Shown here one piece after another: positions 27,522 through 35,457 of a stretch of 64,000 bases of DNA. Both the position numbers and the translations under genes were made by a program. How positions within the stretch are numbered: the first letter of the stretch is position 1; every line of letters starts with the position of its first letter. Source of the stretch: Achromobacter dolens (GTDB lineage Bacteria > Pseudomonadota > Gammaproteobacteria > Burkholderiales > Burkholderiaceae_B). Under the pieces are notes generated by a model. That model saw nothing but the letters and a program-made list of their open reading frames with translations, was not told the DNA's origin and ran no database searches. The stretch is taken from the NCBI RefSeq assembly GCF_902859745.1, contig NZ_CADIJW010000011.1, forward strand, positions 62,001 to 126,000, written 5' to 3'.

Positions 27522-29804
27522 CTATACAAAGACGGGGATTCGAGCCGGCAATTGCTCCCTTACCCAGTTGGTCTGCTGTAACGCCCGCAGGCCGTCCGCA
27601 TGTACGTTTATGTCGCCTGTGATTGAACGCAAGGTTACAAGAATAGTGACTGGCAATGCTTGGGAGAGAGGGGGCTCATACGCGCGTAGCGTTACCCCGG
27701 CCTGTAAGGCCCAACTGTCTCCTGCTGTACCGTTTGGAAAACGCTTCCTGTGGACCTTTACTGGAGCCCATTTTGCGCCGTGTTCAACTTGAAGGGATTC
27801 GAAGCCCGATTGTCCTTCGTCTGAATCCATCGGTACGCGGCCTTTGATTCGATCGCCTTCGAGCACCCCGAAACTGACTTCGACGTTCGCCCGCACATAC
27901 TCGCTGCCCGCGTTCGGATCTAGCGGGGGAGAGTAGACGGCGGTGATAATTACTTCCCCCCGGAATTTTCCGTCCTCGAGCAAGCACGCTGGGATGGGGT
28001 ACGGACTCTTTCTCCATCTCATGCCCGGGAAGACGAGGGCTTCAAACGCCAACGTGAAACTATCATCGCTATCGTAGAGCGTGTTGATTGTGTCCGACGG
28101 TCGTCCTGCTCCGAAATATCTTCGTTCAAGTGCCGAGTACTGTGGCGAGCCAAGCTGTGCTGCATGGATCAATAGGGCCTTTACCATAGCGGGCTTTGGC
28201 GAAGTCCCTTTTCTTCCTTCCAGTGCGCTCCAGGTATGGGCTGCTATGGCGGAGACGATTGGGGCCGCAAAGCTGGTCCCGAAAGTCTGAATTGGCATAT
28301 CGGTCGGTGAAAGTGCCTGTACGCTCGCCGGGCCGCTATTCCAAGGGCTGTGAACGCCGCCGCCTGCGTGTACGATATCTGGTTTGGGGGTAAAAACCGG
28401 ACCCGGGCCACGTCTTGAATAGGGGGCTGGATCTCCCGCTTCGACCATTGCGCCGACAGCGGAGATGTGTGCTATCGAGCCTACGGTCAATGATCGTACC
28501 GAATCCCCAGGGCTGCCCACGCGATCTGTTAGTGTGCTTGCTGCTGGCCATGACCGCCGCGGTAATGAAGTATAGTTGCCTGCAGCTACGACGAATAAGA
28601 CTCCGTACCTATCTGACATCTCGTCCAAGGCTTGAGCAAACTCGCTGAATAAATCGGGGTCGCATTCATCTGAACTTAAAGATAAATTCCAGACCTTCAC
28701 AGCGGGGTACTTTGGGATAGTCGTTTTTAAACGCTCGATTAGGTCGCTGATATAGCTGCCGTTCGTTTCCAGTCCTGATACATCAATCACCCAACACCCG
28801 ATCGGCGGGAACCAATCGTGCGATTCGTTAAGTATCCGCGCGCCAGCAACTAACGAAGCAACCATAGTTCCGTGGACATGGTCAGTGTCTGGAGGAAGGA
28901 CGAAGGTCTCCGTTGCTCGTATCCATTGGTTCAAGCTTGTTGCGCGTGTCGAAACCCCTGTGTCGAATACTCCGACAGTTGGAAGGTCGGAAGAGGGAGA
29001 TGGAAGGCTTATCCTTGGTCTCCGGGCATCGATGACCTCTGCCTGGGGTGTTGCATATCGAGGCTCTGTGCTGGCGACTCGAATGCCTGGGAATGACAGT
29101 AAATGGAAGAGGTCGTCATCAGAAACCGAATCAATATCGGCAATGCGGATCAATGGCACTGAGCCATAGTCCATTTTGATGAGCTTCGAACTGATGTTTA
29201 GCTTGGCTAGCAAGTCACTCAGGGCAGACAGATTCCTTGCCGTTGCATCTGACTCTTGATAGCGAAATGGACGAATTAGGATAGGTCCATTGTCGCGAAG
29301 CGAGTCCAGTCCTTGCGGTACTCTGCGCTCAATGGACCAGGGCATGATCTTGATAATTGCGCTTAGATTGGCGCGTACCTGCTTGGTCGTACGATTTAGA
29401 ATAGACCACCGTAATTGGGCAATGCTCGCCGCATGCGCGCCGACTAACATTTCGTCAACGCTGGCATGCCCTGCCGGAAGGAGCTCAGACTCTTGAGCTA
29501 ATGTTATTGGTCGATGAGATTTGGCAATCCCGGTGGCACGCAACTTGAAGATCAGTACCCCCAGAGCATTGGGGTGAAACTTCAAGTCCAACGCTAAACT
29601 AGCTTGAGCCGTGTCTAGAGTTTCTACTAGGCGCCGTCTATAAGCGCCGTCAACCGGGACTAATTCTTTGGCCCCGCCTCCTTGCTGCTGTGATGAGGTG
29701 AGGTCAGGACGGTGAAACGGAATGTGGACGAAGGGGTTTTCCCTCCGTGCTTGCATGTTCTCTGGCCTACTGCCTTTATTTGCCTTTCCCTTTCCTTCCG
29801 CCAT
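27522..29804 (-). CDS. S8 subtilisin-like protease, IetS-like defence effector
   Basis: 760 aa, no signal peptide, so cytoplasmic. The N-terminal 275 residues are a regulatory or recognition region. The subtilase domain has a complete triad: Asp281 (VGVFDTGVS), His311 (HVHGTMVAS) and Ser511 (GTSFAAP), plus oxyanion Asn410 (AAGN). A beta-rich C-terminal domain follows (about 560-760). With the overlapping AAA ATPase gene it matches the IetAS pair, a known anti-phage and plasmid-exclusion module. Less GC-rich than neighbours. The target is unknown. Confidence 0.82.
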   Translation of the reverse strand: MAEGKGKANKGSRPENMQARRENPFVHIPFHRPDLTSSQQQGGGAKELVPVDGAYRRRLVETLDTAQASLALDLKFHPNALGVLIFKLRATGIAKSHRPITLAQESELLPAGHASVDEMLVGAHAASIAQLRWSILNRTTKQVRANLSAIIKIMPWSIERRVPQGLDSLRDNGPILIRPFRYQESDATARNLSALSDLLAKLNISSKLIKMDYGSVPLIRIADIDSVSDDDLFHLLSFPGIRVASTEPRYATPQAEVIDARRPRISLPSPSSDLPTVGVFDTGVSTRATSLNQWIRATETFVLPPDTDHVHGTMVASLVAGARILNESHDWFPPIGCWVIDVSGLETNGSYISDLIERLKTTIPKYPAVKVWNLSLSSDECDPDLFSEFAQALDEMSDRYGVLFVVAAGNYTSLPRRSWPAASTLTDRVGSPGDSVRSLTVGSIAHISAVGAMVEAGDPAPYSRRGPGPVFTPKPDIVHAGGGVHSPWNSGPASVQALSPTDMPIQTFGTSFAAPIVSAIAAHTWSALEGRKGTSPKPAMVKALLIHAAQLGSPQYSALERRYFGAGRPSDTINTLYDSDDSFTLAFEALVFPGMRWRKSPYPIPACLLEDGKFRGEVIITAVYSPPLDPNAGSEYVRANVEVSFGVLEGDRIKGRVPMDSDEGQSGFESLQVEHGAKWAPVKVHRKRFPNGTAGDSWALQAGVTLRAYEPPLSQALPVTILVTLRSITGDINVHADGLRALQQTNWVREQLPARIPVFV

Positions 29805-30933
29805 ACGAGTGCTCCCGTTTTAATACGTTACTTACGTGACGAACGGAAACATTATATATGCGCGCTAAATCCCGCAGCGGAAATGAATGAGGATCCCAGA
29901 CTCTTAGCCAGTGGATCTCGGCATCGTTGGTGCTCAATACGGTTCCTGAGTTTAAGGCCAGAGCCAGACCCAGGCGACGGAGCAGCTCAGTTTTGTCAAC
30001 TTGTTGACAGCCTGAAATCACTGCACTTCGCTTCGCATCAAGGCAGACCTGCTCTATCAATGCTCCAGACGCTGACTCTGATAACGTCGCAAGGTCCTCG
30101 AACGAAATTGTTGAAGGTGAGTAGTCACCCAAGAATTTTGCCCAGAGCTGAGCACGCAAACGTATGTCCGGGAACGGCATAGGAACCCGGAAACTGAATC
30201 GGCGCCATACAGCTGGATCAAGCAAAGCCTCGTGATTGGTGGCTGCTACTAGGATCGTCTCGTCGGGCAATGCGTCAATGTTCTGCAGGAGCGCTATCAC
30301 GACTCGCTGAAGTTCCCCAATGTCCCTTTCATTGCCGCGCGCCCCGGCCAATGCATCGAACTCGTCGAGGAAGAGCACGCAGGGGCGTTGCTGTGCATAG
30401 TCCATTACACGGCGCAGATTCCGGCTTGTTTGTCCTAACAGACTGCTGACCAACGTGTCACACCGCACAGTGAGCAGCTGAAGTTTCAATCTAGCAGCGA
30501 TCCAACGAGCGGTCTGGGTCTTGCCTGTGCCGGGGGGGCCATAGATGAGAATTCGGGAAGGGAGGGCAGCACCTGCTTGTACCAGTTGTTCGTGATGTTC
30601 CACGCCGTCGACGAACTCCTGCAAGCGTCGTTCAATAGCGTCGGGGAGTAGAAGATGCAAGCCGTCCAGGTGGGGCATGCTGATATCCACAGTGTGCAGA
30701 CGACTTTCTCCGTCAACAGGCAACGTGCCAAGGGTCGCTTGTAGTGAGCCGTCTTGGGCTGACGCCACTGCCAGCGGTGCGCGTGCGAGTCGTTCCCGAA
30801 TCAGGGATGCCTGGCGCCGTTCCCCGGCAGCTTCCAGCTTGTCAGCAAGCAATCCGGCGTAGTTCGCAGCCATGGAGGCATTTGCTCTGAGCGCGCCTTC
30901 TAGGATCTTCACTACTTCAGACATGTTTTCCAA
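29776..30933 (-). CDS. AAA+ ATPase, IetA-like partner of the subtilase
   Basis: 385 aa from TTG 30933 (AAGGA upstream) or ATG 30924. An N-terminal helical domain precedes a FtsH/Cdc48-like AAA core: Walker A GPPGTGKT (132-139), Walker B VLFLDEFD (186-193), sensor Asn233 and arginine finger near 244-245. The last 35 residues (DLARIYNVSVRHVSNVLKRE) look like a helix-turn-helix. In IetAS the ATPase and protease act together. The gene overlaps the subtilase start by 29 nt. Confidence 0.82.
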   Translation of the reverse strand: MENMSEVVKILEGALRANASMAANYAGLLADKLEAAGERRQASLIRERLARAPLAVASAQDGSLQATLGTLPVDGESRLHTVDISMPHLDGLHLLLPDAIERRLQEFVDGVEHHEQLVQAGAALPSRILIYGPPGTGKTQTARWIAARLKLQLLTVRCDTLVSSLLGQTSRNLRRVMDYAQQRPCVLFLDEFDALAGARGNERDIGELQRVVIALLQNIDALPDETILVAATNHEALLDPAVWRRFSFRVPMPFPDIRLRAQLWAKFLGDYSPSTISFEDLATLSESASGALIEQVCLDAKRSAVISGCQQVDKTELLRRLGLALALNSGTVLSTNDAEIHWLRVWDPHSFPLRDLARIYNVSVRHVSNVLKREHSYGGRKGKGK

Positions 30934-31570: not shown

Positions 31571-31762
31571 GTGGACGTGACGGACTGGCAGCAGCGGGAC
31601 CAATACTTCTGGGCAGGGCCTGGCGGCTGGACGATCTGCCGGGTGTTCGCTCAGAACCGCTGGCAGTACGAGGTGTGGGCGGCGAACGGTACGCGCCACG
31701 GTATGGAGCCCTCCCTGGTCGCCGCGATCGTGCTCTACGATCGGGTCAAGCCGACGGCATAG
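31571..31762 (+). CDS. Small SOS-controlled protein, 63 aa
   Basis: GTG 31571 follows AAGGGACGG; an in-frame TTG at 31547 is less likely. The product (MDVTDWQQRDQYFW..., RWQYEVWAANG) is Trp-rich and beta-like, with no recognised family. It is the first gene after the LexA-box promoter and runs toward the SRAP gene, overlapping its 3' end by 17 nt. Induction on DNA damage is predicted. Confidence 0.65.
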   Translation: MDVTDWQQRDQYFWAGPGGWTICRVFAQNRWQYEVWAANGTRHGMEPSLVAAIVLYDRVKPTA

Positions 31763-32438
31763 GTTGCACGGGCTCGATGGCGTCCGGCAACTGGTATTTC
31801 GAATTGCCGACTTCCTGGCGCACCGGGTGCCAGGTGAACGCGGTTTCCGGTGAGCCATGCTCCAGCAGTGCAATCGCCTGCGCGGTGGGAAATTCCTGGT
31901 CCATCCAGTGGATGGCGAGGTCGGCCGGCAGCGCTACCGGCCGGCGGTCGTGGACGTCGACCATGCCGCCAGCGGCGTCGTTGGTGACGATGGCGAAACC
32001 GTGGGCCTCGTCCTTCTCGGCGTCCGGCCGCCAGTTGCTCAGCCCGGCGAAGAACAGGGGCGCATTGTCGGTGGCGTGGATGAAGTAGGGCTGCTTGGGC
32101 GGCTTCGGCCCATCGGCCAGCGGCTTCCATTCGTACCAGCCATCCGCCGGCACCAGGATGCGGCCGCGCGCGGTGAGCATCTTCCAGGGCCAGGCGCCGG
32201 CGAGGATCTTGTCCAGCCTCGCGTTCGACATGAGGTACTTCGAATTGTGCGGGCGCCAGCCCCAGTGCAGCCGCTCCAGTTCGAAGTCGCCGGCCAGGCG
32301 ATGCATTGTCATCGGGCGCGTGCCCGGCGGAATGTTGTAGAGCGGGCCGGCTGGGTCATCGAAGACGCGGCGAGGGTTGGGAAATATGCGCTCGACGTAA
32401 TCGAGCGGGCCCGACTTCTGGACGATGCGACCGCACAT
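31746..32438 (-). CDS. SRAP protein (SOS response-associated peptidase, HMCES/YedK family)
   Basis: 230 aa with all key residues: catalytic Cys2 (MCGRIV), Asn35 (YNIPPGT), Glu102 (GWYEWK) and His162 (VHDRRPVAL). SRAP proteins form a stable DNA-protein crosslink with abasic sites in single-stranded DNA and shield them. GAGGAG lies 6 nt before the ATG. A prophage copy could protect replicating phage DNA or counter host nucleases. It lies beside a LexA box, as is common in the family. Confidence 0.9.
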   Translation of the reverse strand: MCGRIVQKSGPLDYVERIFPNPRRVFDDPAGPLYNIPPGTRPMTMHRLAGDFELERLHWGWRPHNSKYLMSNARLDKILAGAWPWKMLTARGRILVPADGWYEWKPLADGPKPPKQPYFIHATDNAPLFFAGLSNWRPDAEKDEAHGFAIVTNDAAGGMVDVHDRRPVALPADLAIHWMDQEFPTAQAIALLEHGSPETAFTWHPVRQEVGNSKYQLPDAIEPVQPMPSA

Positions 32439-32495: not shown

Positions 32496-32519
32496 CCTTG
32501 GTATAGGCCCACAGCCTAC
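32496..32519 (+). repeat. Right copy of imperfect direct repeat
   Basis: Partner of 31187-31209 (CCTTGGTA, then GCCCACAGCCT in common). The two copies flank the 1.3-kb SRAP cassette and could mark its exchange points. Confidence 0.45.
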
Positions 32520-32989
32520 TTTAGGGCATCGCGGGCTTGCCTCAACGCGGACTTCAATTCGTTCGAAGCCGCGCGCATTCGCGCGAAACGTGCATCTTGA
32601 ACACTGTAGGCTGGCCTCTGTTTGGACTGAAAGTCGCCGTCTGTAAGTGCCTTTCGAAAATTCATAGCCTGCTGCGTCAGTTCTCGACATGCATAGGGAT
32701 GTGCAGCGTTCAGATCGGAGATATGTTTGGTGATAGAACTAACTTGGCCGCTGATATGCATGCCCGTAATGTGAGTCTGAGCGGTGTCACCTGCTTCGAG
32801 GTAGTAGGAGCAAGCGGACTGTTCTGAGGCCTCCACTTTCTCAATGAGAGATGAGAAGTCACTATAGGCTTGTTGGCGTCTCAAGCCCTTGGCGGTCTGG
32901 CGAGCTCCCAGGACATAGACAGCAAGCGAAGGCACTGCCCCACCCAGCAGCCCTATGATGAATTCTTGTGCTAGAGTCTTCTCAGGCAT
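32516..32989 (-). CDS. Membrane-anchored protein of the GHKL/STAS operon
   Basis: 157 aa. Its ATG shares a base with the stop of the STAS-like gene (TAATG), so translation is coupled. One N-terminal span (about residues 9-30, FIIGLLGGAVPSLAVYVLG) precedes a mostly helical cytoplasmic region. The latter includes ARQTAKGLRRQQAYSDFSSL and a C-terminal ARMRAASNELKSALRQARD helix. No family recognised. As the last gene it is the possible effector or membrane receptor of the system. Confidence 0.7.
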   Translation of the reverse strand: MPEKTLAQEFIIGLLGGAVPSLAVYVLGARQTAKGLRRQQAYSDFSSLIEKVEASEQSACSYYLEAGDTAQTHITGMHISGQVSSITKHISDLNAAHPYACRELTQQAMNFRKALTDGDFQSKQRPAYSVQDARFARMRAASNELKSALRQARDALK

Positions 32990-33315
32990 TAGCGGTGGTG
33001 CAGTCGTTCGCTTGACGCGTCATCAACATAGCCCCAGATCTCGATCGGCAACGTGTTGTCCTCTTCTGACTTGAGAACGAGACTCTGATGAAGCTGGCTG
33101 GCCGAAATCTTGTGAAGTCTGACGAGGCCCCCGAATGCCTCCTCCAAGAACGACGAGCCATAGCCTTCCGCCCCATCCAGATCCACGGTCACTCGACCGC
33201 CGGTTCGAAGAGCCGGCCAAAGGAGTTCGTCCCGAAATCGTTCGCCGCTAAACGGGCCATCGCTGACGTAGCGCCCCGCTGGAACGGGCGAGAAATCAAT
33301 TGCTACCCTGATCAT
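32989..33315 (-). CDS. STAS-like protein (DUF4325)
   Basis: 108 aa from ATG 33315, with AAGGA 8 nt upstream; an earlier in-frame ATG at 33330 is possible. IRVAIDFSPVPAGRYVSDGP, FSGERFRDELLWPAL and YGSSFLEEAFGGLVRLH are the signature segments of DUF4325 STAS-like proteins. STAS domains are partner-switching modules bound by GHKL kinases, as SpoIIAA with SpoIIAB. Here the gene overlaps the GHKL gene by 20 nt, strongly implying a functional pair. Confidence 0.85.
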   Translation of the reverse strand: MIRVAIDFSPVPAGRYVSDGPFSGERFRDELLWPALRTGGRVTVDLDGAEGYGSSFLEEAFGGLVRLHKISASQLHQSLVLKSEEDNTLPIEIWGYVDDASSERLHHR

Positions 33316-34414
33316 TTTCGCTTCCTTCATCGGGATCTCCAGACCAATTCGTGACCCGGTCGATTGGAACCGTCCATCTAATTAAAGTTCCGCCTAGCTC
33401 GGCGTCCAGGGTGTCGTGCGACTCCCCTCCGCCGCTAGTATAACTATAGCGACCGCGCCGGCTGTAGATGTGCATTTCCCCAGCGCCTGCCTGGTCAATA
33501 AATTGGCGTAGATCGTTCAGCCCCTTCCCCCTGTGACCCTTCCTGGTGCGGGTGCGCCCTATCTCCATGCCTGCGTATATCATTGCTCCGTCGTCCGGGC
33601 GGACGCCAGGCAAGAGGGACAGAGCTCCCCGAATCATCTCCAAAGGATACCTTCTTGGTAGTGTACGTGGAATACCAACGCCCAGGTCACAGAACATGAT
33701 CGAAAGGCGCTTGCTCGGGCGATGGTAGTGACCACAGAGCCACCACCTATTGTGCGCATCTCCCAAGTTCATCCGTGTGGGGGGATAAGCGTGTTGTAGC
33801 GCGTTGAGCATCGCCTCGATGACGCCGCGTTGAAGTTGCTTCCTTGCCATAGTATTCATGGCAATCTTGTCTCCAAGTAGGCTCTCGCGAAGCTCCTTCG
33901 CGCTCTCTGATTCCAGCTTCGTCCCCGAGCGGAATTTGATGTACTCCATCGGAAAAGTGCGCTGCGATTTGAGTGGCGATTTGATGTTGAGCAGTTCGAA
34001 AAAGCCCATGTCGCACATCCTTTTGAGCAATGTTTGATCTTCTGGGTACGTTCCTGTTAGGGCTTTCTTGCCTCGGAGAATTTGCGCCCTATGTACTTCT
34101 GCCAGAAGTACCAGTAGGGCGGAGGGCCGGATGCTCTCACATTCTTCCAATCGCAACCTAACTGTCACCTTTGCGTGCTCTACTGTCATTCGTAGCTTTT
34201 GCAGCAACGATGCGCATTCGTCGAAGCGCGTTTCTAGGCATAACAGTTGGGGCACGAACACGTCGATAAATTCTGGTCGTCTGTTGTTGTCGACGACAAT
34301 GGGAAGGTACCGAGTGTTCGCGTACACTCTTCCGCGTCGATTGTGCCGCCTCCAGAAGCGCTCGTCTCCAAGGTTCTGCAGCCGCACACGCCTATCTTCT
34401 CGCAAGCGTTTCAT
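33296..34414 (-). CDS. GHKL ATPase with N-terminal STAS-like domain
   Basis: 372 aa. Residues about 38-147 look like a STAS domain (VTVRLRLEECESIRPSALLV..., MCDMGFFELLNI). Residues 190-350 are a GHKL ATPase with an intact N box (Glu200, Asn204), G1 (CDLGVG, 242-247), G2 (HRGKGL, 294-299) and the terminal GGTLIRW strand. There is no phospho-acceptor His domain, so it is not a sensor kinase but more like RsbW/SpoIIAB or an ATP-driven switch. No clear ribosome site precedes ATG 34414. First gene of the three-gene unit next to attR. Confidence 0.82.
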   Translation of the reverse strand: MKRLREDRRVRLQNLGDERFWRRHNRRGRVYANTRYLPIVVDNNRRPEFIDVFVPQLLCLETRFDECASLLQKLRMTVEHAKVTVRLRLEECESIRPSALLVLLAEVHRAQILRGKKALTGTYPEDQTLLKRMCDMGFFELLNIKSPLKSQRTFPMEYIKFRSGTKLESESAKELRESLLGDKIAMNTMARKQLQRGVIEAMLNALQHAYPPTRMNLGDAHNRWWLCGHYHRPSKRLSIMFCDLGVGIPRTLPRRYPLEMIRGALSLLPGVRPDDGAMIYAGMEIGRTRTRKGHRGKGLNDLRQFIDQAGAGEMHIYSRRGRYSYTSGGGESHDTLDAELGGTLIRWTVPIDRVTNWSGDPDEGSENDQGSN

Positions 34415-34680: not shown

Positions 34681-34727
34681 GCATGGGGTGCAAGGGGTCG
34701 CGAGTTCGAATCCCGCCGTCCCGACCA
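34681..34727 (+). tRNA. 3' fragment of tRNA-Pro(GGG): prophage attachment site attR
   Basis: 47 nt beginning GCATGGGGTGCAAGG, with anticodon loop ATGGGGT (GGG, 34685-34687), T-loop TTCGAAT and acceptor strand CGTCCCGA plus CCA. The 5' half is absent: sequence left of it is phage. The T stem has one A-C mismatch (GCGAG/CCCGC), which suggests drift after loss of function. An intact tRNA-Pro should lie at the left end, outside the window, next to the integrase. Confidence 0.85.
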
Positions 34728-34842: not shown

Positions 34843-35457
34843 TCAGCAGCTTGACCGGCATTTCGCTACAGATGCGGGTCGCGTTCCGTTGCGCTTGTCA
34901 TCGCAGTCCGAGGGAATGCAAATAGGCGAACACTTCGTGGGAGTCAGCGGGGCGCACGGTTCACCGGATTTGCCAAGGGGCCGGTTTTTCGCCAACCATT
35001 GTGTCAACGCGAGAACCTTGTCTTCGGGTAAGTCGCGCCGATACCGAGGTCCTCTTTTCTCCAGCTTGAGACTGCTTAGAGAGCGGGGAAGTTGGGCGAT
35101 GCTCAGGGCATCCTTGCCGAAGTAGTGGAAATGGCTGGATACCAGCGCCCACTGATTGCCGTGATGGTCATCGCGCTGATCCCAACGGCCATTGAAGCGG
35201 GGATCGACCAGGAAATCCTTGAAGGGGAGTTTCTCGTCCACACGCATAAGATAGATGATCTTCCCGTGGCCGGCACTGGCTCTGCTCGCGCCGCCGGTTC
35301 CCATGACCCAGTCGCCCACCTTTGCCATTTCGACAATATTGTTCGTGCCGCCTGGCTTTTTGTACATGCAGTGCACGAGGGTGCAGAATCCGCTTTCGGG
35401 ATTCGGCGACCTGCCGTGGTCGTGATCAACGACGTAGGAATAGAGTACGTTGGCCAT
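34843..35457 (-). CDS. Nmad2-like putative nucleotide-modification protein
   Basis: 204 aa. LYSYVVDHDHGRSPNPESGF, then CTLVHCMYKK, VGDWVMGTGG, GKIIYLMRVDEKLPF and FLVDPRFNG match what I know of the Nmad2 family (nucleotide modification associated domain 2). These are found near DNA-modification and phage-defence genes. Catalysis is undemonstrated. It lies just outside attR and ends toward it, so it may belong to an older element at the same tRNA. The C-terminus is Cys-rich (CRSSC). Confidence 0.72.
   Translation of the reverse strand: MANVLYSYVVDHDHGRSPNPESGFCTLVHCMYKKPGGTNNIVEMAKVGDWVMGTGGASRASAGHGKIIYLMRVDEKLPFKDFLVDPRFNGRWDQRDDHHGNQWALVSSHFHYFGKDALSIAQLPRSLSSLKLEKRGPRYRRDLPEDKVLALTQWLAKNRPLGKSGEPCAPLTPTKCSPICIPSDCDDKRNGTRPASVAKCRSSC

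What the first reader, a model, noticed from the sequence alone, without database searches (positions are those of the whole stretch)
32516..34414. Three-gene GHKL ATPase / STAS-like / membrane-protein operon beside attR: candidate undescribed system
Seen: three reverse-strand genes, coupled by a 20-nt overlap and a TAATG junction, less GC-rich than the structural genes, in the cargo zone directly inside the attachment site. The ATPase has every GHKL motif but no His-kinase dimerisation domain, and carries its own N-terminal STAS-like domain. The second gene is a DUF4325 STAS-like protein; the third is anchored in the membrane. Known: GHKL-STAS pairs work as partner switches (SpoIIAB/SpoIIAA, RsbW/RsbV). 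Inferred: a partner-switch sensor controlling a membrane effector, plausibly anti-phage, as cargo at prophage ends often is. I know of no described defence system with this composition.
Basis: partly seen in the sequence, partly recalled or inferred. Interest (0 to 1): 0.82.

Follow-up and report, generated by a model that had tools for sequence, protein, structure and literature searches.

The report
Candidate kinase-switched membrane defence operon
Three genes at the end of a bacterial prophage form a widespread set, related to a recently described phage-triggered toxin switch but with a membrane protein in the toxin's place, so it is probably a new variant of a phage-defence system.

Summary
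In detail: three coupled minus-strand genes (A 33296-34414, B 32989-33330, C 32516-32989) start about 280 bp inside attR of a 47.7-kb prophage, near a complete IetAS defence system. A is a STAS-like plus GHKL kinase-type protein, B a DUF4325 STAS protein, C a protein with one membrane span. The set is a conserved unit: A precedes B in 152 of 160 fetched loci, and a C profile follows B in 132 of 136. In two inspected E. coli genomes it lies in the gpA-gpQ defence hotspot of P2-like prophages; in 19 of 58 viral loci it lies behind a CI-type repressor. Closest known is VapKSC (EMBO J 2026): a STAS-GHKL kinase phosphorylates a STAS antitoxin and frees a VapC toxin. B's best PDB match is VapS (weak, E 0.041), and two VapKSC-like loci with PIN third genes have kinases homologous to A. 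So this is a new variant: the same switch with a membrane protein in the toxin's place. Phosphorylation, membrane damage and defence are inferred, not shown. No paper found here describes it, but an unidentified three-gene P2-hotspot system could be the same.

The parts
33296..34414 (-). Gene A: basic N-terminal tail, STAS-like domain, GHKL (SpoIIAB/RsbW-type) kinase domain, 372 aa
   Evidence: ORF; HATPase_c E 0.0036, below cut-off; phrog_3364 3.1e-48; profile hits RsbW/SpoIIAB; homologous to VapKSC-like kinases
32989..33330 (-). Gene B: DUF4325 STAS-like protein, VapS-like, candidate phospho-site Ser59 (alternative start at 33315)
   Evidence: PF14213 1.7e-15; best PDB profile hit Escherichia VapS 9z7o, E 0.041; conservation
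32516..32989 (-). Gene C: 157-aa protein, one N-terminal membrane span then an all-helical, probably cytoplasmic domain; proposed effector
   Evidence: ORF; hydropathy; topology statistics; AlphaFold2 model pLDDT 95.2, pTM 0.82, helices 5-63, 70-96, 104-116, 133-156; family profile
34692..34727 (+). attR core (3' end of tRNA-Pro, 36-bp direct repeat)
   Evidence: intact tRNA-Pro(GGG) at the left copy
27522..29804 (-). IetS protease of the neighbouring IetAS defence system (context, not part of the triad)
   Evidence: PADLOC IetS 1.4e-293; NF042956
29776..30933 (-). IetA ATPase of the neighbouring IetAS defence system (context, not part of the triad)
   Evidence: PADLOC IetA 1.4e-143; NF042959

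Best explanation
A three-gene anti-phage (superinfection-exclusion) system carried by prophages, plasmids and chromosomes, working by the VapKSC logic with a membrane effector. At rest B (STAS antitoxin) binds C and keeps it inactive. A trigger of infection, most likely nucleic acid sensed through A's basic tail and STAS/GHKL part, switches on A, which phosphorylates B at Ser59. Phosphorylated B lets go of C, whose membrane helix and helical domain then assemble and impair the membrane, stopping the infected cell. Shown here: the gene unit, the homologies, the conserved kinase and phospho-site residues, the predicted helical fold and likely topology of C, and the genomic setting. Inferred: phosphorylation, B-C binding, trigger, membrane damage and phage defence.
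For: (1) One unit: A upstream of B in 152 of 160 loci; C profile in 132 of 136 distinct loci with room, including 23 of 26 not used to build it. Of 31 DUF4325 places in 398 genomes, C profile hits occur in 8, each with a strong B match and an A match (A truncated in L065); L070 has a C-like gene the profile misses; the other 22 have no hit. Distances of A, B and C over 96 loci correlate (A-B 0.61, A-C 0.75, B-C 0.55; none of 500 permutations as high). (2) Kinase switch: of 127 A rows E200 99%, N204, D243, G245, G296 and G298 100%; B Ser59 is S 92% and T 4% of 142 rows and lies outside the search pattern; it aligns with VapS Ser48 and with S and T in two VapKSC-like loci. (3) Effector slot: these two loci have PIN-domain third genes and A is homologous to their kinases over both domains (hhalign 97.8 and 96.1%). 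(4) C: K/R 0.4 before and 4.5 in 15 residues after the span, more after than before in 109 of 113, so N-out/C-in; confident helical model. (5) Trigger: N-terminal tail of A has net charge +5 or more in 120 of 127. (6) Setting: P2 gpA-gpQ hotspot in the two E. coli genomes inspected (20 of 5,426 genomes hold the triad); CI/S24-type repressor upstream in 19 of 58 viral loci, downstream in none; IetAS near by; mad, AriA, HEC-01A and AbiLi models among nearest neighbours elsewhere.
Against: No experiment on any member was found. The aromatic residue that stacks on ssDNA in CapK/VapK could not be placed in A: aromatics at positions 93-98 reach at most 41 of 127 rows, although Phe at 89 is common (102 of 127; the window has Leu). 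C gives only isolated matches to effector or toxin-like families. 22 of 135 C candidates score below the hydropathy threshold (some are not C or have a wrong start). In 3 of 8 plasmid and phage triads the third gene is not hit by the C profile. The match of B to VapS is weak on its own (E 0.041; Prob 72.5). 4 of 160 loci have no A and orphan B genes exist. The neighbour scan has no control.
Confidence: 0.6

Rival explanations
1. C is the sensor rather than the effector: it sits in the membrane, feels phage adsorption or envelope stress, and controls A; B then acts on another, unlinked target.
For: C has a membrane span and a helical domain, a layout also seen in sensors; no broad match to a toxin family.
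Against: In the homologous VapKSC-like loci the third-gene slot holds a PIN protein (PMC13373217), and no fourth gene is regularly tied to the triad: only 9 of 127 loci have a same-strand ORF of 80 aa or more within 30 bp downstream.
Confidence: 0.17
2. A lysogeny-control switch of the prophage itself: A and B act on the CI-type repressor or its operon and tune induction; C tethers the complex.
For: A repressor gene lies upstream on the same strand in 19 of 58 viral loci; CapS, the other relative, is a transcription repressor (PMC13373217).
Against: The triad also occurs on plasmids, in the P2 hotspot and, in the window, at the opposite end of the prophage from the integrase; B has no second domain in Pfam.
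Confidence: 0.12
3. A classical anti-sigma/anti-anti-sigma module controlling transcription, unrelated to phage defence.
For: Profile hits to RsbW and SpoIIAB.
Against: A sigma-factor domain appears in 2 of 106 neighbouring genes of the viral loci; the operon holds no phosphatase gene; location on mobile elements.
Confidence: 0.06

Closest known systems
VapKSC (Chambers et al. 2026, EMBO J, PMC13373217; abstract, sections 7 and 11-14, and passages read)
   Same: Three-gene operon; STAS-GHKL kinase; small STAS protein with an aligned Ser/Thr; third gene in the effector slot. The B proteins of the two VapKSC-like loci found here are also DUF4325.
   Different: Third gene is a membrane protein, not a PIN/VapC RNase; A has a basic tail and an invariant Trp pair that the two VapKSC-like kinases lack; the triad kinases form one side of a branch (98/85) in a 62-row tree with some long branches.
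CapK/CapS (same paper)
   Same: GHKL kinase with an N-terminal STAS domain acting on a STAS protein; tied to immune operons.
   Different: CapS carries a winged HTH and represses transcription; CapK has an N-terminal HTH instead of a basic tail; B shows no DNA-binding domain.
SpoIIAB/SpoIIAA and RsbW/RsbV partner switches
   Same: GHKL serine kinase and STAS substrate; shared N-box and G1 motifs.
   Different: No linked sigma factor seen, no phosphatase in the operon, an extra STAS-like domain and a membrane protein.
RexAB-type systems (PMC12894663, passages read)
   Same: Position behind the CI-type repressor in many phages; cytoplasmic protein plus membrane protein.
   Different: The paper's membrane protein PP_5644 has four predicted spans and its partner is a DNA-binding RexA-like protein; the words ATPase and STAS do not occur in its text.
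Unnamed three-gene P2-hotspot system protecting against P1 (Rousset et al. 2022, PMC9122126; section 10 read)
   Same: Three genes at the same gpA-gpQ locus in E. coli.
   Different: Described as having no clear predicted domain, whereas B has a Pfam domain; its sequences are in a supplementary table not available here, so identity is neither shown nor excluded.

Membership tests
VapKSC | STAS-GHKL kinase as first gene | tested here: met
   hhalign of the 107-row A alignment against kinases of two PIN-carrying loci: Prob 97.8% over 258 columns and 96.1% over 265 columns
VapKSC | Small STAS protein with conserved Ser/Thr at the phospho-site | tested here: met
   Ser59 S 92%, T 4% of 142 rows; aligned to VapS Ser48 (an 18-residue tag offset is inferred)
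VapKSC | Third gene is a VapC-like PIN RNase | tested here: not met
   C is a helical protein with a membrane span; no PIN family in the Pfam tally of 120 C proteins
VapKSC | Aromatic residue in the kinase needed for activation by ssDNA (VapK F54, CapK W68) | tested here: inconclusive
   The paper's numbering could not be mapped to A; aromatics at positions 93-98 reach at most 41 of 127 rows, Phe at 89 is in 102 of 127
VapKSC | Kinase phosphorylates the STAS protein and so frees the toxin; phage protection | not testable with these tools
   needs biochemistry and plaque assays
CapK/CapS | STAS protein carries a winged HTH and binds DNA | tested here: not met
   B is 113 aa and matches DUF4325 only
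SpoIIAB/SpoIIAA-type anti-sigma switch | GHKL serine-kinase motifs (N box, G1, G2) | tested here: met
SpoIIAB/SpoIIAA-type anti-sigma switch | Linked sigma factor | tested here: not met
   sigma-70 region 4 in 2 of 106 neighbour genes of the viral loci; the chromosomal loci were not scanned for it
Any system in PADLOC-DB 2.0.0 | Profile match of A, B or C | tested here: not met
   Window A, B, C: none at E<=1. A, B, C of three further triads and one orphan B: none at E<=10. 120 C proteins at E<=0.01: 13 models, LeoBC in 8 members (best 2.5e-4), a cyclase model in 1 (2e-7), 2TM and 1TM effector models in 1 each

The most novel reading that the evidence does not exclude
Probability: 0.5. Interest if true: 0.82.

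Novelty: new variant of a known kind. Interest (0 to 1): 0.7.

Why it matters
It gives a function hypothesis, with named residues to test, to DUF4325, a domain of unknown function that only 2 papers of the held library mention, and to a membrane-protein family of which no Pfam model matches more than 2 of 120 members. It would extend the kinase-STAS switch of bacterial immunity from a transcription repressor and an RNase to a membrane effector, across at least six phyla (by contig titles) and in a hotspot where P2-like phages of E. coli carry weapons against other phages.

Tried and rejected
Looking for VapK/VapS relatives with the VapS fragment printed: no match in plasmids or viral contigs; VapKSC-like loci were found instead among the DUF4325 places. 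Pfam and PADLOC on 120 C proteins gave isolated matches only; PDB sequences gave mostly coiled-coil or other helical proteins, best E 0.025. Ser60 of B as the phospho-site: invariant, but inside the search pattern, and aligned to a proline in VapS, so Ser59 is preferred; the alternative stays open. The idea that the triad is part of IetAS was dropped: IetAS is complete on its own. RexAB identity was rejected on content. Orphan B genes without A exist (L010, L013, L120, L198), and L124 and L129 have a C but no A was found, so the unit is not absolute. L126 carries a tandem A-B-A-B-C. A in the Acinetobacter plasmid L011 is split by an insertion sequence. Of the 13 plasmid records I inspected 9; the other 4 (three Vibrio parahaemolyticus, one Aeromonas) were not looked at.

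Full report
WHAT IS THERE. B has two possible ATG starts, giving a 35-nt or a 20-nt overlap with A; B and C share TAATG. Their GC is 53-57%, like the neighbouring IetAS genes (54-55%) and below four phage structural genes sampled (61-68%). A 36-bp sequence at 34692-34727 occurs one more time in the genome, 47.7 kb to the left, at the end of an intact tRNA-Pro next to an integrase gene (PF00589 1.5e-13). So the operon starts about 280 bp inside attR. IetA and IetS, a known defence pair, lie 1.6 kb further in. Terminase, portal, tape-measure and tail-fibre genes confirm the prophage.

WHAT THE PROTEINS ARE. B is DUF4325, a STAS-like domain. Profiles of A best match RsbW and SpoIIAB among solved structures (E 0.014-0.042 with 8 sequences; 0.0058-0.086 with 107). 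The profile of B best matches Escherichia VapS (9z7o, E 0.041), and hhalign gives Prob 72.5 over 45 columns. These scores are weak singly but point to one kind of system. In 127 aligned A rows (the window's own viral copy among them) the GHKL residues are near-invariant, and so is a Trp pair, W224-W225. A begins with a basic tail: median 55 residues up to a conserved proline, 30% Lys+Arg, net charge +5 or more in 120 of 127 (ORFs taken from their first start codon). C has one hydrophobic span near its start, few basic residues before it and many after it (0.4 against 4.5 in 15 residues; more after than before in 109 of the 113 of 135 candidates that pass the hydropathy threshold; start codons were chosen near the end of B), so its helical part should face the cytoplasm. 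The AlphaFold2 model of C has mean pLDDT 95.2, pTM 0.82 and four helices, the first running from residue 5 through the span to residue 63.

A CONSERVED UNIT. Marinobacter phage AS1, plasmids of Vibrio, Leptospira, Acinetobacter and Novosphingobium, and a Pasteurella record with phage genes carry the same order. In 5 of these 8 the C profile hits the third gene; in Leptospira, V. scophthalmi and A. indicus a protein of similar size stands there but is not hit. A Francisella phage paper lists three such genes in a row (PMC7924643, one table passage). Scans with B found 331 relatives in the species-genome collection and 229 in viral contigs, of which the best 80 each were kept; these sets are biased to near relatives of the query and to one peptide pattern. 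In these 160 loci (19 share a B sequence with another) A lies directly upstream in 152, 4 are at contig edges and 4 lack it. Among 141 different B sequences, 136 loci had room for C; a C profile built from 110 of them hits 132, including 23 of 26 not used to build it. The misses are L120 and L198 (no A either), L126 (a tandem A-B-A-B-C, whose C follows the second B) and L200 (a C-like ORF is there). A sample not chosen for the triad: 31 DUF4325 places in 29 of 398 genomes of the phylum. C profile hits occur in 8 (the window, measured on its viral copy L005, plus L049, L052, L055, L065, L066, L068, L073); in L065 A is short. L070 has a C-like gene that the profile misses; the other 22 have no hit, though one of them, L061, has little room. 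So about 2% of the sampled genomes carry the triad, and C goes with this A-B kind. Distance matrices of A, B and C over 96 loci correlate. Organism titles and the Leptospira plasmid span Pseudomonadota, Bacteroidota, Planctomycetota, Omnitrophota, Kaiserbacteria, Desulfovibrio and Spirochaetota (phylum names partly recalled; several are metagenome bins).

THE LINK TO VapKSC. A paper of June 2026 (PMC13373217; abstract, sections 7 and 11-14, and passages read) describes CapK/CapS and VapKSC: a STAS-GHKL kinase, activated by ssDNA in the case of CapK, phosphorylates a serine of a STAS protein; in VapKSC, phosphorylation is proposed to free a VapC toxin, and the operon protects E. coli about 100-fold against phage Bas42, lost on mutation of VapC D28, VapS S48 or VapK F54. 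The main text does not mention DUF4325. In the DUF4325 survey two loci, L054 and L057, have a PIN-domain third gene (PIN_12 5.7e-6, below its cut-off; PF01850 5.2e-8, above) and DUF4325 second genes, so they look like VapKSC. A is homologous to both kinases over the STAS and GHKL parts. B's Ser59 aligns with VapS Ser48 (offset of an 18-residue tag inferred), with Ser in L057 and Thr in L054; it is Ser in 92% and Thr in 4% of 142 rows and lies outside the search pattern. In a 62-row tree (40 triad rows drawn at random, the rest chosen by me) the triad kinases form one side of a branch (98/85; 97% of 200 bootstrap trees), apart from the PIN-linked ones; the program warns of long branches. Same trigger module, different third gene.

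WHERE IT SITS. In E. coli the triad is in 20 of 5,426 complete genomes at this similarity; in the two inspected it lies between the replication endonuclease (gpA) and the portal (gpQ) of a P2-like prophage, the hotspot where P2 keeps old and tin and where other defence systems were shown to work (PMC9122126, section 10). The E. coli proteins match the three profiles (A 3e-90, B 3e-36, C 1e-29), as expected of 77% identity to a locus in the data set. Six fetched loci have a portal-like gene on the opposite strand after the triad, five of them directly. In 19 of 58 distinct viral loci with A (some near-duplicates; 48 have 2.5 kb of room) a CI/S24-type repressor lies within 2.5 kb upstream on the same strand, and in none within 2.5 kb downstream (47 with room); among the 80 chromosomal loci it is 7, one of them on the other strand. 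This is the place of rexAB in lambda. Nearest neighbours of the chromosomal loci (128 genes) match models of mad3 (4), mad8 (4), AriA (4), an ATPase-Toprim (4), NsnB (3), HEC-01A (2), type I specificity (2) and AbiLi (2); 25 of 244 models were listed, one gene may match several, and there was no control.

HOW IT LIKELY WORKS. By homology to VapKSC: B holds C; A, triggered by infection, phosphorylates B; C is released and acts on the membrane. The basic tail of A suggests nucleic acid as trigger, but acidic lipids at the membrane are an alternative. The operon has no phosphatase, which fits a one-way trigger. None of these steps has been shown.

IS IT NEW. Full-text searches for DUF4325 (2 papers), STAS-like domain-containing protein (1), GHKL/STAS/phage-defence terms (30 of 38 listed, 25 listed, 15 of 18 listed) and VapKSC/CapK/CapS (10 of 104 listed) showed no description of the triad in the listings and passages seen, among open-licence papers only. 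PADLOC 2.0.0 has no model that matches it. Two cautions: the P2-hotspot study tested an unnamed three-gene system without clear domains that protects against P1, and the DefensePredictor paper lists HATPase among the domains of untested predicted systems (PMC13092281, one figure legend and outline seen); neither could be compared by sequence, so either could include this triad. I rate it a new variant of a known kind.

Noticed in passing
window 27522-30933: Complete IetAS anti-phage system (IetS protease, IetA ATPase) in the same prophage end; the two ORFs overlap by 29 bases.
   Followed up: partly
window 31746-32438: SRAP (SOS-response-associated peptidase) gene between IetAS and the triad; SRAP matches 3 of 106 neighbour genes of viral loci, one of them this prophage's own viral copy.
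   Followed up: no
window 34843-35457: Nmad2 (nucleotide modification associated domain 2) gene just outside attR, on the host side.
   Followed up: no
L126 4463-7782: Tandem A-B-A-B-C in a Brevundimonas metagenome bin: two kinase-STAS pairs with one membrane gene.
   Followed up: no
L010 5986-6306; L013 5004-5345: Orphan DUF4325 genes of the triad kind without A: near a helicase gene that looks like Cas3 (my reading of the translation, not searched) in Pseudomonas silesiensis, and in Vibrio vulnificus, where Ser60 is replaced by Gly.
   Followed up: no
L059, L061, L067, L069, L072: Single ORFs that match both the A (GHKL) and the B (DUF4325) profiles, without C; a related but distinct use of the pair.
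   Followed up: partly
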